Below, one piece after another: positions 43,596-55,044 of a stretch of DNA of 64,000 nt. The position numbers and the translations under genes were made by a program. The stretch is from contig NZ_JAEQBW010000005.1 in the NCBI RefSeq assembly GCF_016679925.1, forward strand, positions 124,001 through 188,000, given 5' to 3'. The notes below the pieces were generated by a model. That model did no database searches, was not told where the DNA came from, and saw nothing but the letters and a program-made list of their open reading frames with translations. This DNA comes from Marivirga aurantiaca (lineage in GTDB: Bacteria; Bacteroidota; Bacteroidia; Cytophagales; Cyclobacteriaceae). How positions within the stretch are numbered: the stretch's first letter is position 1; each line of letters opens with the position of its first letter.

Positions 43596-44201
43596 TTATC
43601 CATTTTTTATTTTTTTAAATGCGAAGGTTCCCATAGTTCTTACATTTCCAACGACCACATATTTTGGTATTTCCAAAAATTCCAATCCGTAAATATTGTA
43701 GAAATGTTGTAAAAGGTTTTCATTCAGAAGAAACCTCTTTTTATTATCAGCAATGTTATTCTCGCCTGAATTATCTAGTCCTTTATCGGCCATTGTCCTC
43801 ATAAACAACTTTCCGTCAGGCTTTAACACCCTTACGCATTCACTAAGCATTTGCATGAAATGAGTTTGACTTTCAGCAAAGTGTAGAACTGCCGAATTAA
43901 TGATTACATCAAAGCTTTCGTCCGGGAAACGAAGTTTGGCCAAATCCATCACCTGAAAGCGGGCATCGATATCTGTTACATTGAATTGTTTAGCCATTAG
44001 TTTTAAAAACATAATAGCTTCCGGGTTTTGATCAACTCCAAAAACATCATAACCAGTTTGCATACAGTAGAAGAGATTGCGCCCTTCTCCACATCCGGCA
44101 TCCAATATTTTCGCATCGTCCTCAAGGTTTCCTTTTAATATAAAATCCAACCAATAAAGGTCTATGTTTCCAATAAGTTTATTGATTGTTTTCCAATGCA
44201 T
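43596..44201 (-). CDS. Class I SAM-dependent methyltransferase
   Basis: 201 residues from the ATG at 44201 (the frame opens to 44234). Motif I is ILDAGCGEGRN (about 34-44), followed by GVDQNPEAI for SAM ribose binding and FDVIINSAVLHF. The C-terminus is basic. Substrate unknown. Its start overlaps the patatin gene by 23 bases (56 with the longer frame), so the pair is probably coupled. Confidence 0.85.
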   Translation of the reverse strand: MHWKTINKLIGNIDLYWLDFILKGNLEDDAKILDAGCGEGRNLFYCMQTGYDVFGVDQNPEAIMFLKLMAKQFNVTDIDARFQVMDLAKLRFPDESFDVIINSAVLHFAESQTHFMQMLSECVRVLKPDGKLFMRTMADKGLDNSGENNIADNKKRFLLNENLLQHFYNIYGLEFLEIPKYVVVGNVRTMGTFAFKKIKNG

Positions 44202-45102
44202 ATTGATAGTCTTTAAAAGCTGATTCAAAAGCATTTTTCCCAGCCTCTACCAATGATTTACTTTTATAGAATTCAAAGGTCCCGCAACTTTCTCTTGATA
44301 CACGCACCACCATTTCAGGCTGCTGTTTCTCCATCTGGAGCGTTGTGATACGCTGTTGCATCAAATCGATAGAGCGGTTCAGTAAGTCAAAATACCCGAA
44401 CTTTTTAACATTGTTACGTCCTGTAGGTGAAGGGTCTTTTGTGGGATAAGGCCACATATTTTTCATTTTCAGCTTAAATTCTTCCAGAAACTGATTATAT
44501 TTCTGGTTCTCCTGTACTTCCACTGCTGTTACAGGAGTTGGGGGAATAAAAGGAATGTTAGAGTTTACATCTACCGCTACCAGTATATCTCCATTGGTTC
44601 TGCTTACAAAATTAATGGGGATCGGATTTAAAACGCCTCCATCTACAATTTCTTCTCCTTTTAAATATACAGGTTTCATTACAGTAGGAATGGCACATGA
44701 TGCCCTTAAAGCATCCATTAAGTTGCCTTTATTGTAAATAACCTCTTTCTGCGTTCTGATATTTGAAGCCACAGCAGAAAAAGGAATATTCATTTCTTCT
44801 ATTTGTATGTCTCCAAGAATTTTGCTCATTTCTCTAAACACACGCTCTCCCCGTACAAATCCCTGTAGACTAAAGGTAAAATCCAGCAACTTAAATACAT
44901 CGATTTTATCGAAGTTGGTAACCCATTCCTTATAAAGGTCCAGCTTGCCTGCCGCGAAAATCCCGCCTACTACAGCACCCATACTGGATCCTGCAATTGA
45001 AGTGATTTCAAAATTATTTTCCAATAATGCCTCAATAACACCAATGTGGGCTACACCCCTGGCACCCCCACTACCTAAAACCAAAGCTACTTTTTGTTTC
45101 AT
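44179..45102 (-). CDS. Patatin-like phospholipase (RssA/NTE type)
   Basis: 307 residues. Oxyanion motif GSGGARG (10-16), nucleophile S40 in GSSMG and catalytic D154 in VDGG; all key parts of the Ser-Asp dyad are present. No signal peptide, so it is cytoplasmic. Single-domain bacterial patatins of this type release fatty acids from phospholipids or act in lipid turnover. It is followed in the same direction by the methyltransferase. Confidence 0.93.
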   Translation of the reverse strand: MKQKVALVLGSGGARGVAHIGVIEALLENNFEITSIAGSSMGAVVGGIFAAGKLDLYKEWVTNFDKIDVFKLLDFTFSLQGFVRGERVFREMSKILGDIQIEEMNIPFSAVASNIRTQKEVIYNKGNLMDALRASCAIPTVMKPVYLKGEEIVDGGVLNPIPINFVSRTNGDILVAVDVNSNIPFIPPTPVTAVEVQENQKYNQFLEEFKLKMKNMWPYPTKDPSPTGRNNVKKFGYFDLLNRSIDLMQQRITTLQMEKQQPEMVVRVSRESCGTFEFYKSKSLVEAGKNAFESAFKDYQYALENNQ

Positions 45103-45198: not shown

Positions 45199-47373
45199 TT
45201 ATGAATTTAAATCCACCCCCTGATTTAATTCAGTAATTGCACGGCTATAAAAATTATCTTTTCCCAATAAATCTTTAGGAGAACCTTCTGCTGTAATTTT
45301 TCCTTTTTCCAGGATATAAATATAGTCTGAAAAAGAAGCCACTTTCATTCTATGGCTTACTATCATAATGGCCTTTTCTGATTTTAATTTATCCAATAAA
45401 TTCAAGATAAATTGCTCGGTATTCCTATCCATTGCAGAAGTTCCTTCATCAATTAACAGCACTTCAGGATTACGATAAAGAGCCCTTGCCAGACCTACTA
45501 GTTGTTTCTGCCCTCCGGAAATGTTAGAGCCTTCTTCACCAAGTAATGTCATGTAGCCCTGAGGGAATTTGTTAAAGAATTGATCGAACCCATTGGCTTT
45601 GCACCATGGGAGAACTTCCTCCAATTTTTTCGGATCGTCAGTTAAAGCAATATTAAAAAGTAAATAATTATTGAAGATTTTAATATCCTGAGGCACCACG
45701 CCAATATTTTTCCTGTATTCACTTAAATTTAGATCCTGTATAGATTGTGTATTAATTTTTACCTCTCCTTCTGAAGGTGTATAAAATCTTTGCATGATTT
45801 GCAAAATGGTACTTTTGCCTGCCCCGCTTTCTCCCAATAAGGTGACAATTTTGCTTTTTTTTATTTGAAGGTTAATTTGTTTCAGCAAGTTTAAAGAGCC
45901 TGGGTAATGAAAACTCACTTTGTCAAAAGCTAAAGTTTCAATAGAATCAGCATTCAATTTAGTGCCTTCTACCTCTTCCGTTTTTATTCCTGTAAATTCT
46001 TCCATCCTGTTAAAAGCTACTTTGGCTTCCTGGAATTGAATATTAAAAAGGGCTATTCGGGTAAGAGAGGGACCAATAGAACCTGAAAGAGACAATAAGG
46101 CCACCAAAGAGCCTAATAAAAGATTCCCCTGCAATACTAAAAAAGAGGCTATTGAAATTACAGCTATTATTAATAAAATGCCCGCTAACTCAGTCAATAA
46201 TCCGAACTTTACCTGAATTTTACCCAATTTAAAAACCTGTTCCTGAAAGGTTTTATATAAAAATGTTGTCGTTCTGTGGAAAAGATTGATAGTTCCAGTG
46301 CTCTTTACTTCGGAAATCCCCGTTATCACATCAATATAATTGCCTTCATTTAATGCATAAGCACTCATTACATCCTTTTGTGCATTAACGATTGGCTTGT
46401 TCAAACGCCATAAAATAAGAGCATAAATAGGGATGAAAATAGAAACCACTATACCTACCTGCCATGAATAAACAAACACGCCAATTAAGGAAATGATTAT
46501 TACCAAAAACTCAATAAGCAAGTTTCCAATTAGGTTGCTGATAGAAGTTTGGATGCGTCTTGTATCATTCATCCTGGCAACCATATCACCAGTTTTTTTT
46601 GAATCGAAAAAAGGTTTAGGAATGCGTAAGAGAGATTCAAAAAATGAACTGATCATCCGGTTATTAAAATCCTTGCTTTGTGTAATCAGGAAAGTTGACC
46701 TTACATAACTTAAACCCATCTTAATTAACAGTATACAGCCAAAGAGTACCAATCCTATAATTAGCTTATCAATTTCTTTTGTGGGTAAAATAACATCTAT
46801 CAGTTTTTGACTGAAGATGGCAGTCGCTAAGGAAAAAATGGCAATGATGATGCCTAAAAACAATGCGGCCAATAAAATATTTAAATCTTCTTTTACCCAG
46901 CTAAGAAGATTCTCATATCTTCTACTCTTTGCATTTTCCTTTGCAAAGCCTGCGTTAGGAGTTAATTTCAACAATGTTTTTGATTGCCAAACGCCTGCCA
47001 GTTTTTCTTTGCTCCATAATTCCACTCCCCTGCCAGGATCACTCATCATTAATTTGTCTCCCTGGAACCCATAGAAGATCACATAATGCTGCATCCTGTT
47101 TTCAAGCACCACATGCAAAATGGCTGGCTCATCTAATTCTTTCAGATTTTCTATATTCTCTGCTTCAAGTCCTTCTACCTCAAAACCTAAATCTTTTGCT
47201 CCCTGGAATAAGCCTAATAATTTAGTGCCTGTTTGGGTTGTTCCGGTAATTCTTCTTAGCTCGTCCAGTGAATGTTCCCCGCCATGGTATTTAATAATGG
47301 AAGCCAGGCAAGCCGGTCCACAATCCGACTGGCCATGTTGTTGAATGAAATACTTTTTGAATTCTTTGATCAT
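45199..47373 (-). CDS. Peptide-processing ABC exporter with C39 peptidase domain (PCAT)
   Basis: 724 residues in three parts. The C39 peptidase (about 5-140) has the oxyanion Q12, nucleophile C18 (QSDCGPACL), H96 (MQHYVIF) and D112 (MSDPGRG); all are present, so it should cut double-glycine leaders. A six-helix transmembrane domain (about 165-445) follows, then an ATPase with Walker A GESGAGKST, signature NISGGQKQL and Walker B VLLIDEGTSAMD. It is the last gene of a minus-strand cassette that begins with a GG-leader peptide gene at 49452-49619, its likely substrate. No HlyD-type adaptor gene is adjacent. Confidence 0.95.
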   Translation of the reverse strand: MIKEFKKYFIQQHGQSDCGPACLASIIKYHGGEHSLDELRRITGTTQTGTKLLGLFQGAKDLGFEVEGLEAENIENLKELDEPAILHVVLENRMQHYVIFYGFQGDKLMMSDPGRGVELWSKEKLAGVWQSKTLLKLTPNAGFAKENAKSRRYENLLSWVKEDLNILLAALFLGIIIAIFSLATAIFSQKLIDVILPTKEIDKLIIGLVLFGCILLIKMGLSYVRSTFLITQSKDFNNRMISSFFESLLRIPKPFFDSKKTGDMVARMNDTRRIQTSISNLIGNLLIEFLVIIISLIGVFVYSWQVGIVVSIFIPIYALILWRLNKPIVNAQKDVMSAYALNEGNYIDVITGISEVKSTGTINLFHRTTTFLYKTFQEQVFKLGKIQVKFGLLTELAGILLIIAVISIASFLVLQGNLLLGSLVALLSLSGSIGPSLTRIALFNIQFQEAKVAFNRMEEFTGIKTEEVEGTKLNADSIETLAFDKVSFHYPGSLNLLKQINLQIKKSKIVTLLGESGAGKSTILQIMQRFYTPSEGEVKINTQSIQDLNLSEYRKNIGVVPQDIKIFNNYLLFNIALTDDPKKLEEVLPWCKANGFDQFFNKFPQGYMTLLGEEGSNISGGQKQLVGLARALYRNPEVLLIDEGTSAMDRNTEQFILNLLDKLKSEKAIMIVSHRMKVASFSDYIYILEKGKITAEGSPKDLLGKDNFYSRAITELNQGVDLNS

Positions 47374-47447
47374 GTAAGAAAAGGGTTGATCTAATTAAAT
47401 AACATCGTCAAAGTTTAAAAATTTGGAAAAGTTAAAGTGAAGGACAA

Positions 47448-47927
47448 TCACCTTAAAACTTGTAAAATAGCTTCTATTTTTACTTCCCCTTTAAAATGCT
47501 TTTCCAATTCACCATTTTTATAGATAAAAGTTTGAGGCACACCTCCCATAATGGTTGAAGTGAGTAAATCGGGATGAGCCTCTACATAATAAGCTGATAA
47601 ATTATGCTCATTTAAGAATCTAATGGCTTCTGATTTAGGTTCAAAGGAAGCCAGCATTAATTGATAGTCTTCAAACTTTTCAATGTTCTTTTGGATCTCC
47701 TTCATTTCCCACTGACAGAAATGGCAATCACTATTAAAATAAATAAAAATTGTGGATTGGCCGGTATTGATGTTCTCCAGCTTCAATTTTGTAGCAAACG
47801 AGCTAAGGCGTTGGACAATTTTTTCTGATTCAGCTTTTTGATCTAGTTTTTTTATACTGGAATAGCCCATCCATGACAAGAGTCCTATAATCAGTACTCC
47901 GAATACGATTAATAATTTCTTTTTCAT
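47448..47927 (-). CDS. Membrane-anchored thioredoxin-like protein in the peptide-export cassette
   Basis: 159 residues. An N-terminal helix (about 5-22) anchors a periplasmic thioredoxin fold. The active site is C68-H-F-C71 (SDCHFCQWE) and the cis-proline loop is GGVPQTF. A histidine-containing CxxC with an export signal suggests a disulfide-forming or exchange role. The precursor core has exactly two cysteines, so this protein may make or check that disulfide. It lies 3 bases after the membrane-protein gene and before the exporter. Confidence 0.8.
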   Translation of the reverse strand: MKKKLLIVFGVLIIGLLSWMGYSSIKKLDQKAESEKIVQRLSSFATKLKLENINTGQSTIFIYFNSDCHFCQWEMKEIQKNIEKFEDYQLMLASFEPKSEAIRFLNEHNLSAYYVEAHPDLLTSTIMGGVPQTFIYKNGELEKHFKGEVKIEAILQVLR

Positions 47928-47930
47928 TAG

Positions 47931-48569
47931 CTATCCTCCTAAGTTAATTGATAAGAAAGTAATGAAAAGTATCCAAACAATGAGAGCCGAACCATACACA
48001 GGTAGTGTGAAACTCAATGCGGAATCATAATCCATCTTCAGTATTTTCTTGATGCCCAATGCCAAAATCAATAAATAAAGTGCCTCAAAAAGATTGAGGG
48101 ATTTTAAAGGAAAAATTAGCCATGATTCTATTGTAGTGGCTTCAAATAAGCTAAGAAGTGAAAGCGGGGCAAAATATTGAATATCATTAAAAGAATAATT
48201 GGTGTCAAATATACCAAACCAAATGATTAATAGTAGAGAAGGCAAAAGCCAAACAAATTCTGCTCCAATAATTACTTTGAAAATCGATTTAAAAGTGACT
48301 TTGTATCCAAAAAGGATAGTTCCGCATAAAATCCAAAAGCTGATAAGTGAAAATTTTATCAAATAGATTATAGGAAGAAATAAGTAATTTAACCAAGCCC
48401 ACTCTTTTCTCGTCTCAATCATTCTCAAAATTCGTTCGTAACCCATTTGCTCTTGAAAATATTCAATAATCAGATTTTCTTTAATTATGTGATTTTGGAG
48501 AATATAACTGAGGAGACTGGCTGCGAGAACTAGAAATATATAGAGATATAATTTATTAGTATTAAACAT
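47931..48569 (-). CDS. Polytopic membrane protein of the peptide-export cassette, unknown function
   Basis: 212 residues with about five or six membrane helices (Yip1-like hydrophobic profile: about 8-25, 58-85, 100-120, 132-155, 160-175, 190-210). No catalytic motif is visible. It is translationally close to the thioredoxin-like gene (3 bases). Polytopic membrane proteins beside a bacteriocin-type exporter are often immunity factors or accessory transport proteins, so it is a candidate for either. No family recognised with confidence. Confidence 0.65.
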   Translation of the reverse strand: MFNTNKLYLYIFLVLAASLLSYILQNHIIKENLIIEYFQEQMGYERILRMIETRKEWAWLNYLFLPIIYLIKFSLISFWILCGTILFGYKVTFKSIFKVIIGAEFVWLLPSLLLIIWFGIFDTNYSFNDIQYFAPLSLLSLFEATTIESWLIFPLKSLNLFEALYLLILALGIKKILKMDYDSALSFTLPVYGSALIVWILFITFLSINLGG

Positions 48570-48696
48570 TTTTTATTAGTTCTTCTTAAGAATAAGCTTA
48601 AGATGCCTTCATTATCTTTAATTACCGGAGATAAAACAAAAAAAATTAAAAAATAGAAACTAAGACAAATAAGACAAAAAGAAAGGACTTCTTCAC

Positions 48697-49389
48697 CTAG
48701 TTATTGTAACTTTTAGATGCCTTTTTTATAAAACTGATAGAAATATCACTTATTTGATTTGTCAAATAACCAGAGGTTAAAACTATGTTTTTAGGATATT
48801 TAATAGATGGGTACCCGTCCACTTTTTTATAGTTTTTGAATTCTATTTTAGAATCCATCATATCTGCTGTAAAATAGTCAGTTTGCATAGATGTCATATT
48901 AAATTCTGAATTAAAAATGTACTTTACAGAAGTATTATTATATATGCATTCGCAGCTTGTAATTAATTCATTTTGTCTTATTTGGCAGCTATCATTCAAC
49001 TCCACGAGAAATAATTTTTCAAGAAGAAAATTTTCATTTTCAAAGGTAATTGGTATATCATCCTGCCTCACTAGCTGGCCGTTAAATCCAGTTTCATATA
49101 TATTATTTTGAAATTTTTCATTCAATATAACACCGCTACTATACGTGATTTGCCTTAAATAAGAACTGTCGCTTATATTATAAATAATCGTGTCCTGATA
49201 TATTTTTTCTTGAAAATCGTTAGTTACAACATGATTATTAGATGCATATACAATTTTTGTTATATTATTGATAGAGATAAATTCTTTTAACTTTTTATTT
49301 CTAATTTCAATATTTAAAGAGTCTTGACTTTTTGACATGAGTGGAATGAAGAATATTAGAAGGGTAATTAACAAAGTTGTTTTTTTCAT
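48697..49389 (-). CDS. Secreted protein of the peptide-export cassette, unknown function
   Basis: 230 residues from the ATG at 49389. The frame extends to an ATG at 49410, but that lies in a hairpin and the shorter start begins a good signal peptide (MKKTTLLITLLIFFIPLMSKSQ). The mature part is beta-rich, with NNITKIVYASNNHVV, repeated YSSGVILNE and IYETGFNGQL strands, and contains three cysteines. A lipoprotein-sorting or GLPGLI-like fold is possible but not shown. It could protect the producer, carry the peptide across the periplasm or be unrelated. Confidence 0.65.
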   Translation of the reverse strand: MKKTTLLITLLIFFIPLMSKSQDSLNIEIRNKKLKEFISINNITKIVYASNNHVVTNDFQEKIYQDTIIYNISDSSYLRQITYSSGVILNEKFQNNIYETGFNGQLVRQDDIPITFENENFLLEKLFLVELNDSCQIRQNELITSCECIYNNTSVKYIFNSEFNMTSMQTDYFTADMMDSKIEFKNYKKVDGYPSIKYPKNIVLTSGYLTNQISDISISFIKKASKSYNN

Positions 49390-49402
49390 TTTCCTGGATT
49401 TG

Positions 49403-49435
49403 AAAAACATGGGAATTCAAACAATTCCCGTGTTT
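49403..49435 (-). terminator. Hairpin with T run just after the GG-leader peptide gene
   Basis: Reading the minus strand, AAACACGGGAATT (49435-49423) pairs with AATTCCCATGTTT (49417-49405) with one C-A mismatch, 5-base loop, followed by T5. It begins 17 bases after the precursor stop. It should end most precursor transcripts and let a fraction read through into the cassette genes. Confidence 0.7.
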
Positions 49436-49451
49436 AATTAAGACTAAATTG

Positions 49452-49619
49452 TTATGATACACACCCCGCACTTACATATGCTCCCACATATGTTTCTCTA
49501 CTAATAGAGTCACTAGCTGTCATAGCTAGTCCCCATAAGATATTGCAGGTAGTGAGGCCAGGATCCATTACCAATCCCCCATTAATTTGTTCTAAAGTTT
49601 CTAAATTAACTTTTTTCAT
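49452..49619 (-). CDS. Double-glycine leader peptide precursor (bacteriocin- or pheromone-like)
   Basis: 55 residues from the ATG at 49617-49619 to TAA at 49452-49454. The leader MKKVNLETLEQINGG ends in Gly-Gly at residues 14-15, with the hydrophobic positions (L6, L9, I12) that C39 peptidases recognise. The predicted mature peptide is 40 residues, starting LVMDPGLTTCNILWGLAM. It has two cysteines (C25 and C53) that could form one disulfide, a glycine-rich aromatic segment (TYVGAYVSAG) and near-neutral charge. The exporter with C39 domain is four genes downstream. It resembles class II bacteriocins or bacteroidetocins in form, but I cannot confirm homology. A thiopeptide or lanthipeptide is less likely because no modifying enzyme is nearby. 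Confidence 0.85.
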   Translation of the reverse strand: MKKVNLETLEQINGGLVMDPGLTTCNILWGLAMTASDSISRETYVGAYVSAGCVS

Positions 49620-49733
49620 AATTTTAATTTTTAATTGTTAAACATCCCGCAATAACCATAAAAAAACCAGGTAAATTATTCATATTTGCATAACCTTATT
49701 CATATACAAATAAAAACCAAAACCCGAAGCCTT

Positions 49734-50078
49734 GTGTCAATAGGAGATAACATCAGGAAAATTAGAACAATACGAGGATATAGCCAACAATTTTTAGCAG
49801 ATTCAATTGGAATCAGCCAGAGTAAATTGAATAGAATTGAGAATGGAAAATCAGACTTATCAGTAGATCATCTCATGCAAATATGTGAGGTGCTAGAGTC
49901 TGGTTTCAATGAAATATTACAAACGAGCAACAATTTTAAAAAGTCCTTCCCAAAAAGCGAAATAAAGAAACCTGAATTAATATATGAAGAACATATCCGG
50001 CCACTTAAAGAAGAAATGAGAGCTTTGAGAAATCAGGTTTCAGAAATTTCTTGTCTGCTAAAAAAGCAGAAAACTTGA
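49734..50078 (+). CDS. XRE-family HTH regulator, divergent to the peptide cassette
   Basis: 114 residues from the GTG at 49734; the open frame reaches a TTG at 49686. The GTG start gives MSIGDNIRKIRTIRGYSQQFLADSIGISQSKLNRIENGKSDLS, the complete helix-turn-helix of the Cro/CI type at the N-terminus. The C-terminal half is a short coiled coil (EEHIRPLKEEMRALRNQVSEI), suited to dimerisation. Sitting head-to-head with the precursor gene (114 bases between starts), it is a candidate controller of the cassette. Confidence 0.8.
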   Translation: MSIGDNIRKIRTIRGYSQQFLADSIGISQSKLNRIENGKSDLSVDHLMQICEVLESGFNEILQTSNNFKKSFPKSEIKKPELIYEEHIRPLKEEMRALRNQVSEISCLLKKQKT

Positions 50079-50097: not shown

Positions 50098-50790
50098 CTA
50101 TTTATTCACTTCAATAAATTTATTTACATCCTGAGATTTCCCCAATAGAATCATGATATCAGTTTCTTTCAAAAAAGTATCGGCTCTGGGCACTCCAATA
50201 ATATGTTCTACTTTTTGGATTTCATCTCCTTTTTTTTCCTCAAAAAAACGCTTTACTGTTATTAAGTTAAGATTGTATTTCTCACGAAGGCCAATTTCGC
50301 TAATGGTTTGATCAACCACACGTGAGGGGGTATTAATTTCTACTATTTCATAATCATCCGGCAAAGGAAGGAAAGATCGCATATTTGGGTGAAGCAACAT
50401 TTCAGCTACTGTTTTACCTACAGTTTCCTCCGGAGAAAGAATCTCTTCTATACCCATTTTCTCAAGAATCATTCGTTGTTGGGAATTGGCTGCTCTTGCG
50501 ATTATTCTTTTCACTTCCAGTTCCAGTAAAAGCACAGTGGTCAGAAGTAAACCTTCAAAATTTTCACCAATGGCTACCACAACAGCATCCATGTCCTGAA
50601 TATTCTGGGCCTTGAGTGCTTTTACATCTGTTGAATCAAGTGCAACTGCATACGCCACTTCATCTTTCATTGACTCTACCTTATCCAGGTCAATATCAAT
50701 GGCTAATACCTCCGCACCACGGTCAGCCAAAGTTCTGGCTATTGACTCTCCAAATTGTCCAAGTCCTATTACTGCAAATCGGTTGGTCAT
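50098..50790 (-). CDS. trkA: Potassium uptake regulator TrkA/KtrA-type (RCK protein)
   Basis: 230 residues: an RCK_N Rossmann domain with VIGLGQFGESIARTLADRG (about 6-24) and acidic end of beta-2 (LAIDID), followed by a C-terminal RCK_C domain (about 145-225). The protein gates a TrkH/KtrB-type potassium channel by binding NAD or ATP; the channel gene is not in the window. It overlaps udk by 4 bases (ATGA). Confidence 0.93.
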   Translation of the reverse strand: MTNRFAVIGLGQFGESIARTLADRGAEVLAIDIDLDKVESMKDEVAYAVALDSTDVKALKAQNIQDMDAVVVAIGENFEGLLLTTVLLLELEVKRIIARAANSQQRMILEKMGIEEILSPEETVGKTVAEMLLHPNMRSFLPLPDDYEIVEINTPSRVVDQTISEIGLREKYNLNLITVKRFFEEKKGDEIQKVEHIIGVPRADTFLKETDIMILLGKSQDVNKFIEVNK

Positions 50791-52016: not shown

Positions 52017-52526
52017 TTAATATTGATTTAACCTGATACGAAATTCCAGATTAGCATTGGGTGGAATTACAACAGAACTATCCGATCTTACAACTCCCTC
52101 TTCACCATATGCTAATACTGATGGTATAAAAAGCCGATAATCAGCTCCCTTATTCATTAACTTGAGTCCAAATTTCCAACCTGTAATTATACCACCACTC
52201 ATCCTAAATTGAGCATCAGTACCTGAATCGAAAGTTTGATCTTCACCTAAAATTCTCCCTTCATAATCTACAAGTACACTACTGCAATAGGTTGGAGTAT
52301 TTCCTGTACCCGGTTCAACTATGCTATATCTTAGGCCAGATGGATCTATACTATAATCTATATCATTCTCTTGCAAATAATCATCAATAGCATCCACATC
52401 CTGGTTTAATTGCTGCTGATCAATCTCAGAAATATCCGGGCCTTCAGAACAATCTCTCTCCTCGGTACACGAAAAAAAAGTAATCATAAGAAAAGGGGCG
52501 ATCAAACAAAAAATAACTTTATTCAT
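52017..52526 (-). CDS. FKBP-type peptidyl-prolyl isomerase lipoprotein, divergent copy
   Basis: 169 residues. The lipobox is ITFFSC (signal about 1-20). The FKBP domain (about 75-169) is recognisable from VDYEGRIL, TFDSG, GWKFGLKLM and VIPPNANLEFRIRL, but several active-site positions are changed (YEGRILGEDQTF instead of YVGKLMDGTVF). Smallest and least conserved of three FKBPs in tandem; it may be a chaperone with low isomerase activity. Outer or inner membrane lipoprotein facing the periplasm. Confidence 0.85.
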   Translation of the reverse strand: MNKVIFCLIAPFLMITFFSCTEERDCSEGPDISEIDQQQLNQDVDAIDDYLQENDIDYSIDPSGLRYSIVEPGTGNTPTYCSSVLVDYEGRILGEDQTFDSGTDAQFRMSGGIITGWKFGLKLMNKGADYRLFIPSVLAYGEEGVVRSDSSVVIPPNANLEFRIRLNQY

Positions 52527-52540
52527 TCAACAATGTATGT

Positions 52541-53071
52541 TTAGAATTTAATATCTACTAGTTCAACTTCAAATAATAAAACAGTATTCGGAGGGATAGG
52601 GCCTTTTCCTTCCGGACCATAGGCTAATCCAGAGGGTATAATGAAAGTTGCCACGCTGCCTTCTTTTAATAAAGCCAGACCTATCTCCCAACCAAGTATG
52701 ACCTGACCAGCTCCCAATTGAAACTTGATGGGCTCATAAACGCGGGTCTCACTGAATATTCCTGCTTCTCTTGCAACAGAATCAACAGAGGTATCAAAAA
52801 CTCTTCCATCAAGGTATTTACCCACATAATTAACGGATAATTCCTGCCCTCTATTAGGTAAATCCCCATCCCCTTCATGATCAATGATGTAGAATAAATC
52901 GGAAAAATGTCTTTCTGCTTCAAGGTTATTGTCTTCTAAATAATTCTGGATGATTTGAATATCTTTGGCCAATTGTTCCTCGCTACATTGACCATATTCA
53001 TTTTCACAGTCTTTATTGCAGGAGCTAAAAATAGCTCCTGCACAAAGAATAAGTATTAAATTTCTAAACAT
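52541..53071 (-). CDS. FKBP-type peptidyl-prolyl isomerase lipoprotein
   Basis: 176 residues with lipobox FSSC (signal about 1-18). The C-terminal FKBP domain is complete: VNYVGKYLDGRVFDTS, QVILGWEIGLALLKEG, IIPSGLAYGPEGKGPIPPNTVLLFEVELVD. The Tyr, Phe-Asp, Trp and Tyr positions of the active site are present. Member of the tandem FKBP cluster between rdgB and the gldI-like gene, separated by 14 and 7 bases from its neighbours, so one operon. Confidence 0.92.
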   Translation of the reverse strand: MFRNLILILCAGAIFSSCNKDCENEYGQCSEEQLAKDIQIIQNYLEDNNLEAERHFSDLFYIIDHEGDGDLPNRGQELSVNYVGKYLDGRVFDTSVDSVAREAGIFSETRVYEPIKFQLGAGQVILGWEIGLALLKEGSVATFIIPSGLAYGPEGKGPIPPNTVLLFEVELVDIKF

Positions 53072-53078
53072 ATAGTGT

Positions 53079-54008
53079 TTACTCTACAACATCAACTAAC
53101 TCAACTTCAAAAATCAAGATAGAGTTAGGGGGAATAGCAGCGCCAGCCTGTCTGGAACCATATGCCAAACCTGAAGGAATTAAAAAAGTAGCTTTAGCAC
53201 CTTCGTTTAACAATGCTATGCCTTCATCCCATCCCGGAATCACTCTTCCTTGCCCAATAGGGAATTCCAATGGCTCATATGGCCTCTGTTCATTATATAA
53301 CTCATTCTCTTTGGCGGTTTCCTCAATAGATGTATCGAAAACAGTACCATCCATTAATTTTCCAACATAATTCACTTTCACTGTATCTCCTTGATCCGGG
53401 GATTCTCCGCTTCCTTTTTCTTCTATTACATAATACAAGCCGGATTCAGTTTGCTGAGCATTTAAGTTATTCTCAGCTATATATTCCTGAATTAATTCAT
53501 CATCAATTGTTTTCTGAGCTTCAGCTTCCTTCTCCATCTTAGTCATCATCTCTTCCCTTTTCTGCTCTTGCCACATCACAAAGCCTGCAGAGTCATACTT
53601 TTGAATAGCTTTTGCATAAACAGTTATCCTTTCGTCTTTCTCCATATCTTCGCTCAGAGGCTGACGAAACCCTTTCATGAATATTTCATTGGCCGTTAAA
53701 ATAGTTTTAACACTATCGCCTACATGCATCTCTTTAAGGACAGAAAATAATTGCCCCCTTCTACCTAAAGTAGCCGAATCAATTTGCAAAGGCATTTCAC
53801 CTACTTCCTCACTATCTATCAATACGGAATCCTTGGAATCAATCATTTTAAGGGAATAAGTAACATAGTCCCCTTGTTCAAAGTCTTCTCCATTATCAGA
53901 GTTAATAACAACATATTCCACACCATCTGATGTAGTTTCCTTTTTATTAGAATCACAGGCAATTAAGAATGTAAAGCTAATTAATAAAATCGCGGTTAAA
54001 TTCTTCAT
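53079..54008 (-). CDS. Two-part FKBP-type peptidyl-prolyl isomerase lipoprotein, GldI-like
   Basis: 309 residues from the ATG at 54008 (the frame extends to 54026). Lipobox FLIAC. The N-terminal half (about 35-140) is a degenerate FKBP-like domain, followed by a charged helical linker (KREEMMTKMEKEAEAQ) and a canonical FKBP domain (VNYVGKLMDGTVFDTS, GRVIPGWDEGIALL, FLIPSGLAYG). In Flavobacterium the lipoprotein FKBP GldI is needed for gliding and lies near an nrnA-like gene, as here. It is longer than GldI, so the equivalence is not certain. Confidence 0.9.
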   Translation of the reverse strand: MKNLTAILLISFTFLIACDSNKKETTSDGVEYVVINSDNGEDFEQGDYVTYSLKMIDSKDSVLIDSEEVGEMPLQIDSATLGRRGQLFSVLKEMHVGDSVKTILTANEIFMKGFRQPLSEDMEKDERITVYAKAIQKYDSAGFVMWQEQKREEMMTKMEKEAEAQKTIDDELIQEYIAENNLNAQQTESGLYYVIEEKGSGESPDQGDTVKVNYVGKLMDGTVFDTSIEETAKENELYNEQRPYEPLEFPIGQGRVIPGWDEGIALLNEGAKATFLIPSGLAYGSRQAGAAIPPNSILIFEVELVDVVE

Positions 54009-54009
54009 A

Positions 54010-55044
54010 TCATACATACGTTTCAATTGGTTTTTTATTTTTTAGTTGTACTGAATATTCTTTAATAATGTTTTCAAAAAAGGCAACTGTGTCATCAAGG
54101 CTTTTATAGGAAATACCTCCGGCAGCATTCTTATGTCCTCCGCCATTAAAATAATGCGCGGCTAATGTATTTACCTCAAAATCGCCTATAGATCGCAAAG
54201 ACAATTTAACCCCTTCTTCGCTTTCTGTAAACAAAGCAGCCATAGTGATTCCATTAATAGAAAGTGCATAGTTAACCAATCCTTCCGTATCACCTGTTCT
54301 GGATTTAAATTTTTCCAAATCTTTCATTGAAATGGCAAAATATGCTACGTGGTACTCCGGAAATACTTTCAACCTTTGGCTAAGGGCAAATCCTAAAAAT
54401 TTTAACCTGTCTAAAGAATTGGTGTCATAAATTAAACGTGACACTTCAGAATTATTAGCTCCTAAATCAATTAATTCTGCTACAATCTCATGAACTTCTT
54501 TATTGGTATTAGGGTGCTTGAAGGAACCTGTATCCGTCATGATACCAGCATAAAAGCATTCTGCAATATCTTTATCTACTAAATGTTTATCCCCATATGC
54601 CACGATAGTTTTATAAACCAATTGTGCAGTGGAGGCAGAACCAACATCATGATAACCATAATCAGCAAATTGCTCAGGCTCTCTATGATGGTCGATTAAC
54701 ACTTTCTTTGCAGAGGAATTCCTGACCAACTCTCCCAATTCTTTTATTCTTTTCAAATTGGAAAAATCAAGGCAAAAGATGATATCAGCTTTATTGACTA
54801 AAGATTGAGAAAGACTTTCATTTCCGTCTGAAAACACTACCACTTTGTCATTTCCTTTCATCCAGGCAAGAAAATCCGCATAATCCGATGGCGTGATTAC
54901 GGTTACTTGATGGCCCTTTTTGATCAAATAGTTGTAAAGACCCAAACTACTCCCTAACGCATCAGCATCGGGCTTATGATGTGTGGTGATTATTATATTT
55001 TGAGGTATTTCCAGTACCTCTTTTAGTTTTAATATATCTTGCAT
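54010..55044 (-). CDS. nrnA: Bifunctional oligoribonuclease/PAP phosphatase NrnA (DHH family)
   Basis: 344 residues. DHH-domain motifs: HHKPDADALGSSLG (about 22-35), VFSDGNE with LDFSNL, IDHHREPEQF (DHH) and the DHHA1 motif GGGHKNAAGG near the C-terminus. It hydrolyses short RNA oligomers and 3'-phosphoadenosine 5'-phosphate. First gene of the minus-strand run reaching trkA. Confidence 0.95.
   Translation of the reverse strand: MQDILKLKEVLEIPQNIIITTHHKPDADALGSSLGLYNYLIKKGHQVTVITPSDYADFLAWMKGNDKVVVFSDGNESLSQSLVNKADIIFCLDFSNLKRIKELGELVRNSSAKKVLIDHHREPEQFADYGYHDVGSASTAQLVYKTIVAYGDKHLVDKDIAECFYAGIMTDTGSFKHPNTNKEVHEIVAELIDLGANNSEVSRLIYDTNSLDRLKFLGFALSQRLKVFPEYHVAYFAISMKDLEKFKSRTGDTEGLVNYALSINGITMAALFTESEEGVKLSLRSIGDFEVNTLAAHYFNGGGHKNAAGGISYKSLDDTVAFFENIIKEYSVQLKNKKPIETYV

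What the first reader, a model, noticed from the sequence alone, without database searches (positions are those of the whole stretch)
45199..50078. Compact GG-leader peptide export cassette with its own redox protein and regulator
Seen: a 55-codon GG-leader gene (49452-49619), then on the same strand a secreted protein, a polytopic membrane protein, a membrane-tethered thioredoxin-like protein and a C39-peptidase ABC exporter; a divergent XRE regulator flanks it. Known: C39 domains of PCATs cut leaders after Gly-Gly during export. Inference: this is a full operon for one ribosomal peptide, possibly a class II-type bacteriocin or a signal peptide. The gene set contains no lanthipeptide, radical SAM or YcaO enzyme, so an unmodified disulfide peptide is the simplest reading.
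Basis: partly seen in the sequence, partly recalled or inferred. Interest (0 to 1): 0.88.

Follow-up and report, generated by a model that had tools for sequence, protein, structure and literature searches.

The report
Bacteroidetocin-type peptide cassette with swappable cargo
A Bacteroidota bacterium carries a compact gene set that probably cuts, oxidises and exports a small two-cysteine peptide; it looks like the known bacteroidetocin antibacterial-peptide system, but here the peptide sits next to an unstudied secreted protein that may protect the producer.

Summary
The operon is real: a divergent XRE regulator; a 55-residue precursor (15-residue GG leader, 40-residue two-Cys core); a secreted 237-aa protein; a 5-TM protein; a membrane-anchored thioredoxin-fold protein (CHFC); a C39-peptidase ABC exporter; no HlyD/TolC found in the window. 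5-TM protein + thiol oxidoreductase + C39 exporter + GG peptide is the anatomy of bacteroidetocin (class IIf bacteriocin) regions (PMC6671954). Of 74 loci encoding the 5-TM family, 57 also have the C39 exporter and 49 all three. Within the genus, 71-81% identical exporters sit beside different GG peptides; the precursor was found in none of the 9 other genus genomes. At the same chromosomal site other genus members have another cargo, an empty junction, or single genes. So a constant export module serves interchangeable cargo. Where some relatives have an ABC ATPase and polytopic genes, this locus and several others have a secreted partner (lipocalin-, LolA-, GLPGLI- or CarboxypepD_reg-like elsewhere), sometimes duplicated with its peptide, sometimes without one. 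My reading: a bacteroidetocin-type bacteriocin cassette whose secreted partner is a candidate periplasmic immunity protein (inferred). Activity and partner function are untested; the window's secreted protein has no convincing relative, and its fold model failed.

The parts
49734..50078 (+). XRE-family regulator, divergent (the ORF opens at TTG 49686; GTG 49734 is the likelier start)
   Evidence: HTH_3 E=7.9e-13; start by comparison with the XRE genes of L095 and L209; a divergent homologue of this XRE is found at 13 of 57 loci (window included) that have the 5-TM gene and the C39 exporter
49575..49619 (-). GG leader, 15 residues (MKKVNLETLEQINGG)
   Evidence: the only hit to the leader pattern in the window
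49452..49574 (-). core peptide, 40 residues, two Cys with 27 residues between them, plus the stop codon; calculated monoisotopic mass 4150.97 reduced
   Evidence: no homologue found in the other 9 genus genomes
48697..49410 (-). secreted 237-aa protein with an N-terminal signal segment (may start at 49389): candidate immunity or carrier protein for the peptide
   Evidence: signal-like segment; no Pfam/NCBIfam hit; no match in 58 other relatives; five weak matches (E 0.0016-0.0093) among 290 other order genomes; model pLDDT 33, uninformative
47931..48569 (-). 5-TM membrane protein of the export module, perhaps distantly Yip1-like
   Evidence: five segments; family alignment A1; 3 of 19 members match Yip1 at E<=0.1, best E=5.8e-5, the window protein itself does not; model pLDDT 79 with no PDB match at E<=0.001
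47448..47927 (-). membrane-anchored thioredoxin-fold oxidoreductase, CHFC active site
   Evidence: Thioredoxin_2 E=4.4e-6; CxxC motif found in most family members (2 had none in the stretch searched)
45199..47373 (-). C39-peptidase ABC exporter (PCAT)
   Evidence: Pfam C39 + ABC_membrane + ABC_tran; C18 and H96, the catalytic pair by recalled C39 knowledge, invariant in the 12-row alignment A3; best PDB match PCAT1 4ry2 E=1e-106

Best explanation
A bacteroidetocin-type (class IIf-like) bacteriocin cassette made of two modules. Constant export module: the C39 ABC exporter cuts the leader after Gly-Gly and moves the core across the inner membrane, the thioredoxin-fold protein handles its single disulfide in the periplasm, and the 5-TM protein is a required partner of unknown role. 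Variable cargo module: XRE regulator, the 40-residue peptide and a secreted partner. The partner occupies the slot that holds an ABC ATPase with polytopic proteins (ABC-2-like, putative immunity) in some relatives, and I infer that it binds its own peptide in the periplasm and protects the producer. Shown here: gene content, conservation, cargo swapping at one site, partner genes without peptide, no HlyD/TolC match at these loci. Inferred: cleavage, disulfide, antibacterial action, immunity.
For: Same four components as bacteroidetocin regions, where deleting the peptide, TM or thiol-oxidoreductase gene attenuated activity and four genes sufficed in E. coli (PMC6671954). 49 of 74 5-TM loci have all three export genes and 57 have the C39 exporter; 46 of those 57 have a Cys-containing GG-leader candidate nearby by an automatic pattern; up to 18 of the 74 loci came in through the exporter itself, so the fraction is biased upward. 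The HlyD/TolC queries hit none of the triad loci, only L098/L099 (exporters 31% identical to the window's) and L200. Cargo turnover: L095 has the cassette between the same TrkA and patatin genes with another GG peptide, two polytopic proteins and an ABC ATPase. Of 9 genus genomes compared at this site, 2 have a full cassette, 3 are empty, 1 has a lone lipocalin-like gene, 2 have only a CarbopepD_reg_2 gene (probably a resident neighbour, as L095 has one too), and 1 has XRE + a Sec-type peptide + two CarbopepD_reg_2-like genes. Peptide-partner units: L114 has three peptide + secreted-protein pairs around one exporter (two partners Lipocalin_4-like, one without a Pfam match); L113 has one peptide and a second lipocalin-like gene closer (46%) to L115's partner than to its neighbour (25%). 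On the exporter tree the secreted-partner label, assigned by me, needs 10 changes, at least 7 forced by starred branches.
Against: No activity data. In Bacteroides the bacteroidetocin producers are self-sensitive and no immunity gene was found (PMC6671954), so a partner need not be immunity. The window's secreted protein has no convincing relative; it did not match the LolA-like profile (36th among 302 sequences, 300 of them shuffles of itself) or the lipocalin-like profile, so the slot analogy rests on position and a signal peptide. The window core is not closer to peptides with secreted partners than to others (p=0.78). The link between low hydropathy and a secreted partner (p=7e-6, post hoc) falls to p=0.06 when partner families are collapsed. 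The partner label on the exporter tree is swapped but also clustered (10 changes against a shuffled mean of 14.3). Homology of the 5-TM protein to the Bacteroides TM protein could not be tested.
Confidence: 0.62

Rival explanations
1. A quorum-sensing or regulatory peptide: the GG peptide is exported and sensed, with the XRE protein or the secreted protein in the response circuit.
For: A divergent XRE homologue is at 13 of 57 exporter-bearing loci; some C39 exporters export signal peptides (the competence-factor exporter ComA is among the solved relatives).
Against: No receptor kinase in the cassette; orthologous exporters carry unrelated cargo, unlike a conserved signal; an ABC ATPase with polytopic genes takes the partner slot in some relatives.
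Confidence: 0.15
2. Bacteriocin cassette as above, but the secreted partner is a periplasmic carrier or chaperone that takes the peptide to the outer membrane, standing in for the missing HlyD/TolC.
For: No HlyD/TolC match at the triad loci; partners at other loci resemble LolA_like (E=2.7e-5, 2.7e-4 and 6.5e-5, all below the gathering score) and Lipocalin_4 (two of them above its cut-off), folds known (recalled) to hold hydrophobic ligands; pairs are duplicated together (L114).
Against: Many loci show no secreted partner, and four bacteroidetocin genes without one suffice in E. coli (PMC6671954); a lone partner-like gene persists without peptide or exporter at its site (L204), which suits immunity better.
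Confidence: 0.2
3. The secreted protein is a second effector (two-component toxin) or an unrelated passenger gene.
For: It has no convincing homologue and its fold is unknown.
Against: Secreted proteins of several families recur right behind GG peptides in this position, so a passenger is less likely.
Confidence: 0.15

Closest known systems
Bacteroidetocins A/B and relatives (proposed class IIf bacteriocins), Coyne et al. 2019, PMC6671954
   Same: 5-TM protein, GG peptide with a 15-residue leader and at least two Cys, thiol oxidoreductase, C39-peptidase ABC exporter; Bacteroidota
   Different: An extra secreted protein and an XRE regulator; the peptide precedes the TM gene (in the Bacteroides regions the peptide lies between the TM and oxidoreductase genes); the core is 40 residues against 42-53 reported (PMC8546649, passage); two Cys against four in A and B; sequence similarity to A/B not tested
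Class IIa bacteriocins and PCAT1/ComA-type exporters of Gram-positive bacteria
   Same: GG leader, C39-peptidase ABC exporter (PCAT1 4ry2 E=1e-106)
   Different: No YGNGVxC motif in the core; 5-TM and thioredoxin-fold genes; no operon protein matched a Pfam immunity family
Microcin/colicin V-type tripartite export (C39 exporter + HlyD + TolC)
   Same: GG peptide and C39 ABC exporter in a Gram-negative
   Different: No HlyD or TolC match in the window; that arrangement is seen in a Cytophagales plasmid with a 31%-identical exporter (L200)

Membership tests
Bacteroidetocin (class IIf) | 15-16-residue leader ending in GG | tested here: met
   15 residues, MKKVNLETLEQINGG; range from PMC6671954
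Bacteroidetocin (class IIf) | mature peptide of 42-53 residues | tested here: not met
   predicted core is 40 residues, two short of the published range (PMC8546649 passage); I therefore call the locus bacteroidetocin-type, not a confirmed member
Bacteroidetocin (class IIf) | at least two Cys in the core | tested here: met
   two Cys, 27 residues between them
Bacteroidetocin (class IIf) | adjacent five-TM protein | tested here: met
   five hydrophobic segments at threshold 1.3, helical model pLDDT 79
Bacteroidetocin (class IIf) | the TM protein is homologous to the Bacteroides TM protein | not tested
Bacteroidetocin (class IIf) | adjacent thiol oxidoreductase | tested here: met
   Thioredoxin_2, CHFC
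Bacteroidetocin (class IIf) | adjacent C39-peptidase ABC exporter | tested here: met
   Peptidase_C39 E=1.2e-29
Bacteroidetocin (class IIf) | kills Bacteroidota; acts through BamA (shown for bacteroidetocin A) | not testable with these tools
   needs assays
Class IIa bacteriocin | YGNGVxC motif | tested here: not met
   absent from the core; motif as given in PMC6671954
Lanthipeptide / radical-SAM / YcaO RiPP | modifying enzyme in the operon | tested here: not met
   no such Pfam match among the operon's proteins; the methyltransferase at 43596-44234 lies outside and persists at sites without the cassette (L207, L208)
Tripartite type I (microcin V-like) export | HlyD adaptor and TolC in the cluster | tested here: not met
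   single-sequence HlyD and TolC queries hit nothing in the window; a distant adaptor elsewhere in the genome is not excluded

The most novel reading that the evidence does not exclude
Bacteroidota share one inner-membrane export module (5-TM protein, thioredoxin-fold protein, C39 exporter) into which peptide + secreted-partner pairs are plugged and swapped, in this genus at a chromosomal hot spot. The secreted partners (lipocalin-, LolA-, GLPGLI- and CarboxypepD_reg-like, and the window's orphan) would be an undescribed kind of periplasmic bacteriocin immunity or delivery protein.
Probability: 0.35. Interest if true: 0.75.

Novelty: new variant of a known kind. Interest (0 to 1): 0.5.

Why it matters
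Bacteroidetocins are small-peptide bacteriocins of Bacteroidota that were reported without immunity genes. If the secreted partners protect against their peptides, this gives candidate immunity proteins, explains how producers could survive outer-membrane-targeting peptides, and turns a shared export module into a way to find many more peptides outside the gut, for instance in Cytophagales and Flavobacteriaceae.
Full report
What is there. On the minus strand between a TrkA-type gene (50098-50790) and a patatin gene (44179-45102) lie a 55-codon GG-leader gene, a 237-aa secreted protein, a 212-aa five-TM protein, a 159-aa membrane-anchored thioredoxin-fold protein with CHFC, and a 724-aa C39-peptidase ABC exporter; an XRE regulator is divergent (TrkA named from sequence, recalled). 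The exporter's closest solved relative is PCAT1 (4ry2, E=1e-106). It is the only C39-bearing exporter matched in the genome: all other hits begin at residue 144 or later. The organism belongs to the same genus as Marivirga atlantica: genome G298, labelled same genus, has a contig of the same length (1,635,370) and the same cassette as that species' record.

Relatives. A genome scan gave 18 loci with exporter relatives. The five-TM protein was matched in 65 of 291 order genomes and, as a profile, in 31 of 395 phylum genomes, its own genome included each time. I took 60 stretches around such hits and the genus exporters and looked at 74 non-duplicate loci that encode the five-TM family: 49 have all three export genes within my distance limits, 57 the exporter, 2 the thioredoxin gene only, and 15 neither. 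The loci came in through the exporter, so these fractions are biased upward. Of the 15, seven are lone genes in one family of the order outside any cassette; others are short contigs or degraded loci (L110, L121, L125), and L109 has an exporter farther off. In the Flavobacteriaceae loci (L049-L053, L055) the thioredoxin gene was not found, and a roughly 300-aa protein stands behind the peptide; three of these were tested and match CarbopepD_reg_2. With single HlyD and TolC queries no triad locus had either; the HlyD-linked exporters of two genus members are 31% identical to the window's.

This is the bacteroidetocin anatomy. Coyne et al. 2019 (PMC6671954; outline, passages and sections 7, 14 and 27 read) describe regions of a five-TM protein, a GG peptide with a 15-16-residue leader, a thiol oxidoreductase and a C39 ABC exporter. 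Deleting the TM, peptide or oxidoreductase gene attenuated activity, the four genes sufficed in E. coli, and neither the TM protein nor the oxidoreductase gave immunity. Bacteroidetocin A acts through BamA (PMC8546649, passages). Passages of two more papers were seen (PMC10352776; PMC11195462). The window meets the gene-content features; its core of 40 residues is just under the published 42-53, and sequence homology to the Bacteroides genes could not be tested, so I file it as bacteroidetocin-type.

Cargo is swapped. In the genus, 4 of 9 other genomes have an exporter 71-81% identical to the window's, two have only a 31% identical one and three none at E<=1e-90; none of the nine matched the precursor or the secreted protein. 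L095 (G293) has the export module between the same TrkA and patatin genes but with another XRE, a 67-aa hydrophobic GG peptide, two polytopic proteins and an ABC ATPase. L096 has yet another peptide with an ATPase and a permease (ABC2_membrane_4, E=6e-4, below cut-off), and L039/L097 a peptide with a lipocalin-like protein plus two more GG-like peptides. At the TrkA-patatin site in nine genus genomes: two full cassettes (window, L095), three empty junctions (L203, L207, L208), one lone lipocalin-like gene (L204; Lipocalin_4 E=0.0019, below cut-off; 43% identical to the L039 partner), two with a 432-aa CarbopepD_reg_2 gene (L205, L206; L095 also has such a gene beside its cassette, so it may be resident), and one (L209) with a related XRE, a 74-aa Sec-signal Cys-rich peptide and two CarbopepD_reg_2-like genes but no exporter. 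The tenth genome, G291, shows the export genes next to patatin, but its contig ends near the five-TM gene.

The partner slot. At many loci the gene behind the peptide is an ABC ATPase or a polytopic protein, as expected for immunity; at others it is a secreted protein: Lipocalin_4-like (L125 and one L114 partner above the cut-off; L039, L113, L115, L121 and a second L114 partner below it; the third L114 partner unmatched), LolA_like (L107, L111 and L112 by Pfam, all below the cut-off; L109 and L110 by a profile made from L107, L112, L119 and L100; L100 by a profile made without it, E=3.6e-4; L119 by my alignment alone), GLPGLI on two Flammeovirga plasmids (L198, L199) or CarbopepD_reg_2. L107 has the window's gene order: GG peptides (two candidates, the second with two Cys), LolA-like protein, five-TM, thioredoxin, exporter. 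L114 has three peptide-partner pairs; L113 has an extra lipocalin-like gene resembling another locus's partner; L204 has one alone. Co-duplication and leftovers are what immunity genes show, so I prefer immunity over a carrier, without proof. Statistics are weak: two-Cys peptides with 26-31 residues between the Cys are followed by a secreted protein in 12 of 22 cases against 7 of 50 others (Fisher p=9e-4), but the rule was set after seeing the data, related loci are counted separately, and the hydropathy contrast is not significant once partner families are collapsed. On the exporter tree of 45 rows the partner labels, set by me, change often but are also clustered beyond shuffles.

Limits. 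The window's secreted protein is an orphan by sequence: weak hits in 5 of 290 other order genomes at E 0.0016-0.0093 are not convincing. Its structure model is unusable.

Noticed in passing
L209:6591-8164: At the window cassette's chromosomal site another genus member has a related XRE gene, a 74-aa Sec-signal Cys-rich peptide (no Pfam match) and a CarbopepD_reg_2-like secreted protein, with no exporter: perhaps the same kind of cargo module using the Sec route.
   Followed up: partly
L204:4532-4957: A lone lipocalin-like secreted gene at the site, without peptide or exporter there; looks like a leftover partner gene.
   Followed up: partly
window 49676-49705: Two direct copies of ATATGAATAA, starting 20 bp apart, between the XRE and precursor genes (read from the sequence); possible operator, not tested against chance.
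   Followed up: no
L198:3826-11261: Flammeovirga pectinis plasmid: the export module with a GG peptide and a GLPGLI protein, followed by LanC-like and glycosyltransferase genes.
   Followed up: no
L095:5919-6559: The five-TM gene appears split into two frames (42 and 163 aa) in this genus member.
   Followed up: no
L042: Record titled Rickettsiales bacterium carries a Bacteroidota-type cassette and groups with Marivirga and Fulvivirga exporters; probably a mislabelled bin.
   Followed up: no
L120, L122, L123, L126, L129, L132, L133: Relatives of the five-TM protein that lie outside any cassette; possibly a housekeeping paralogue.
   Followed up: partly
window 52017-54026: Three consecutive FKBP-type-looking lipoprotein genes (named from sequence, recalled).
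   Followed up: no
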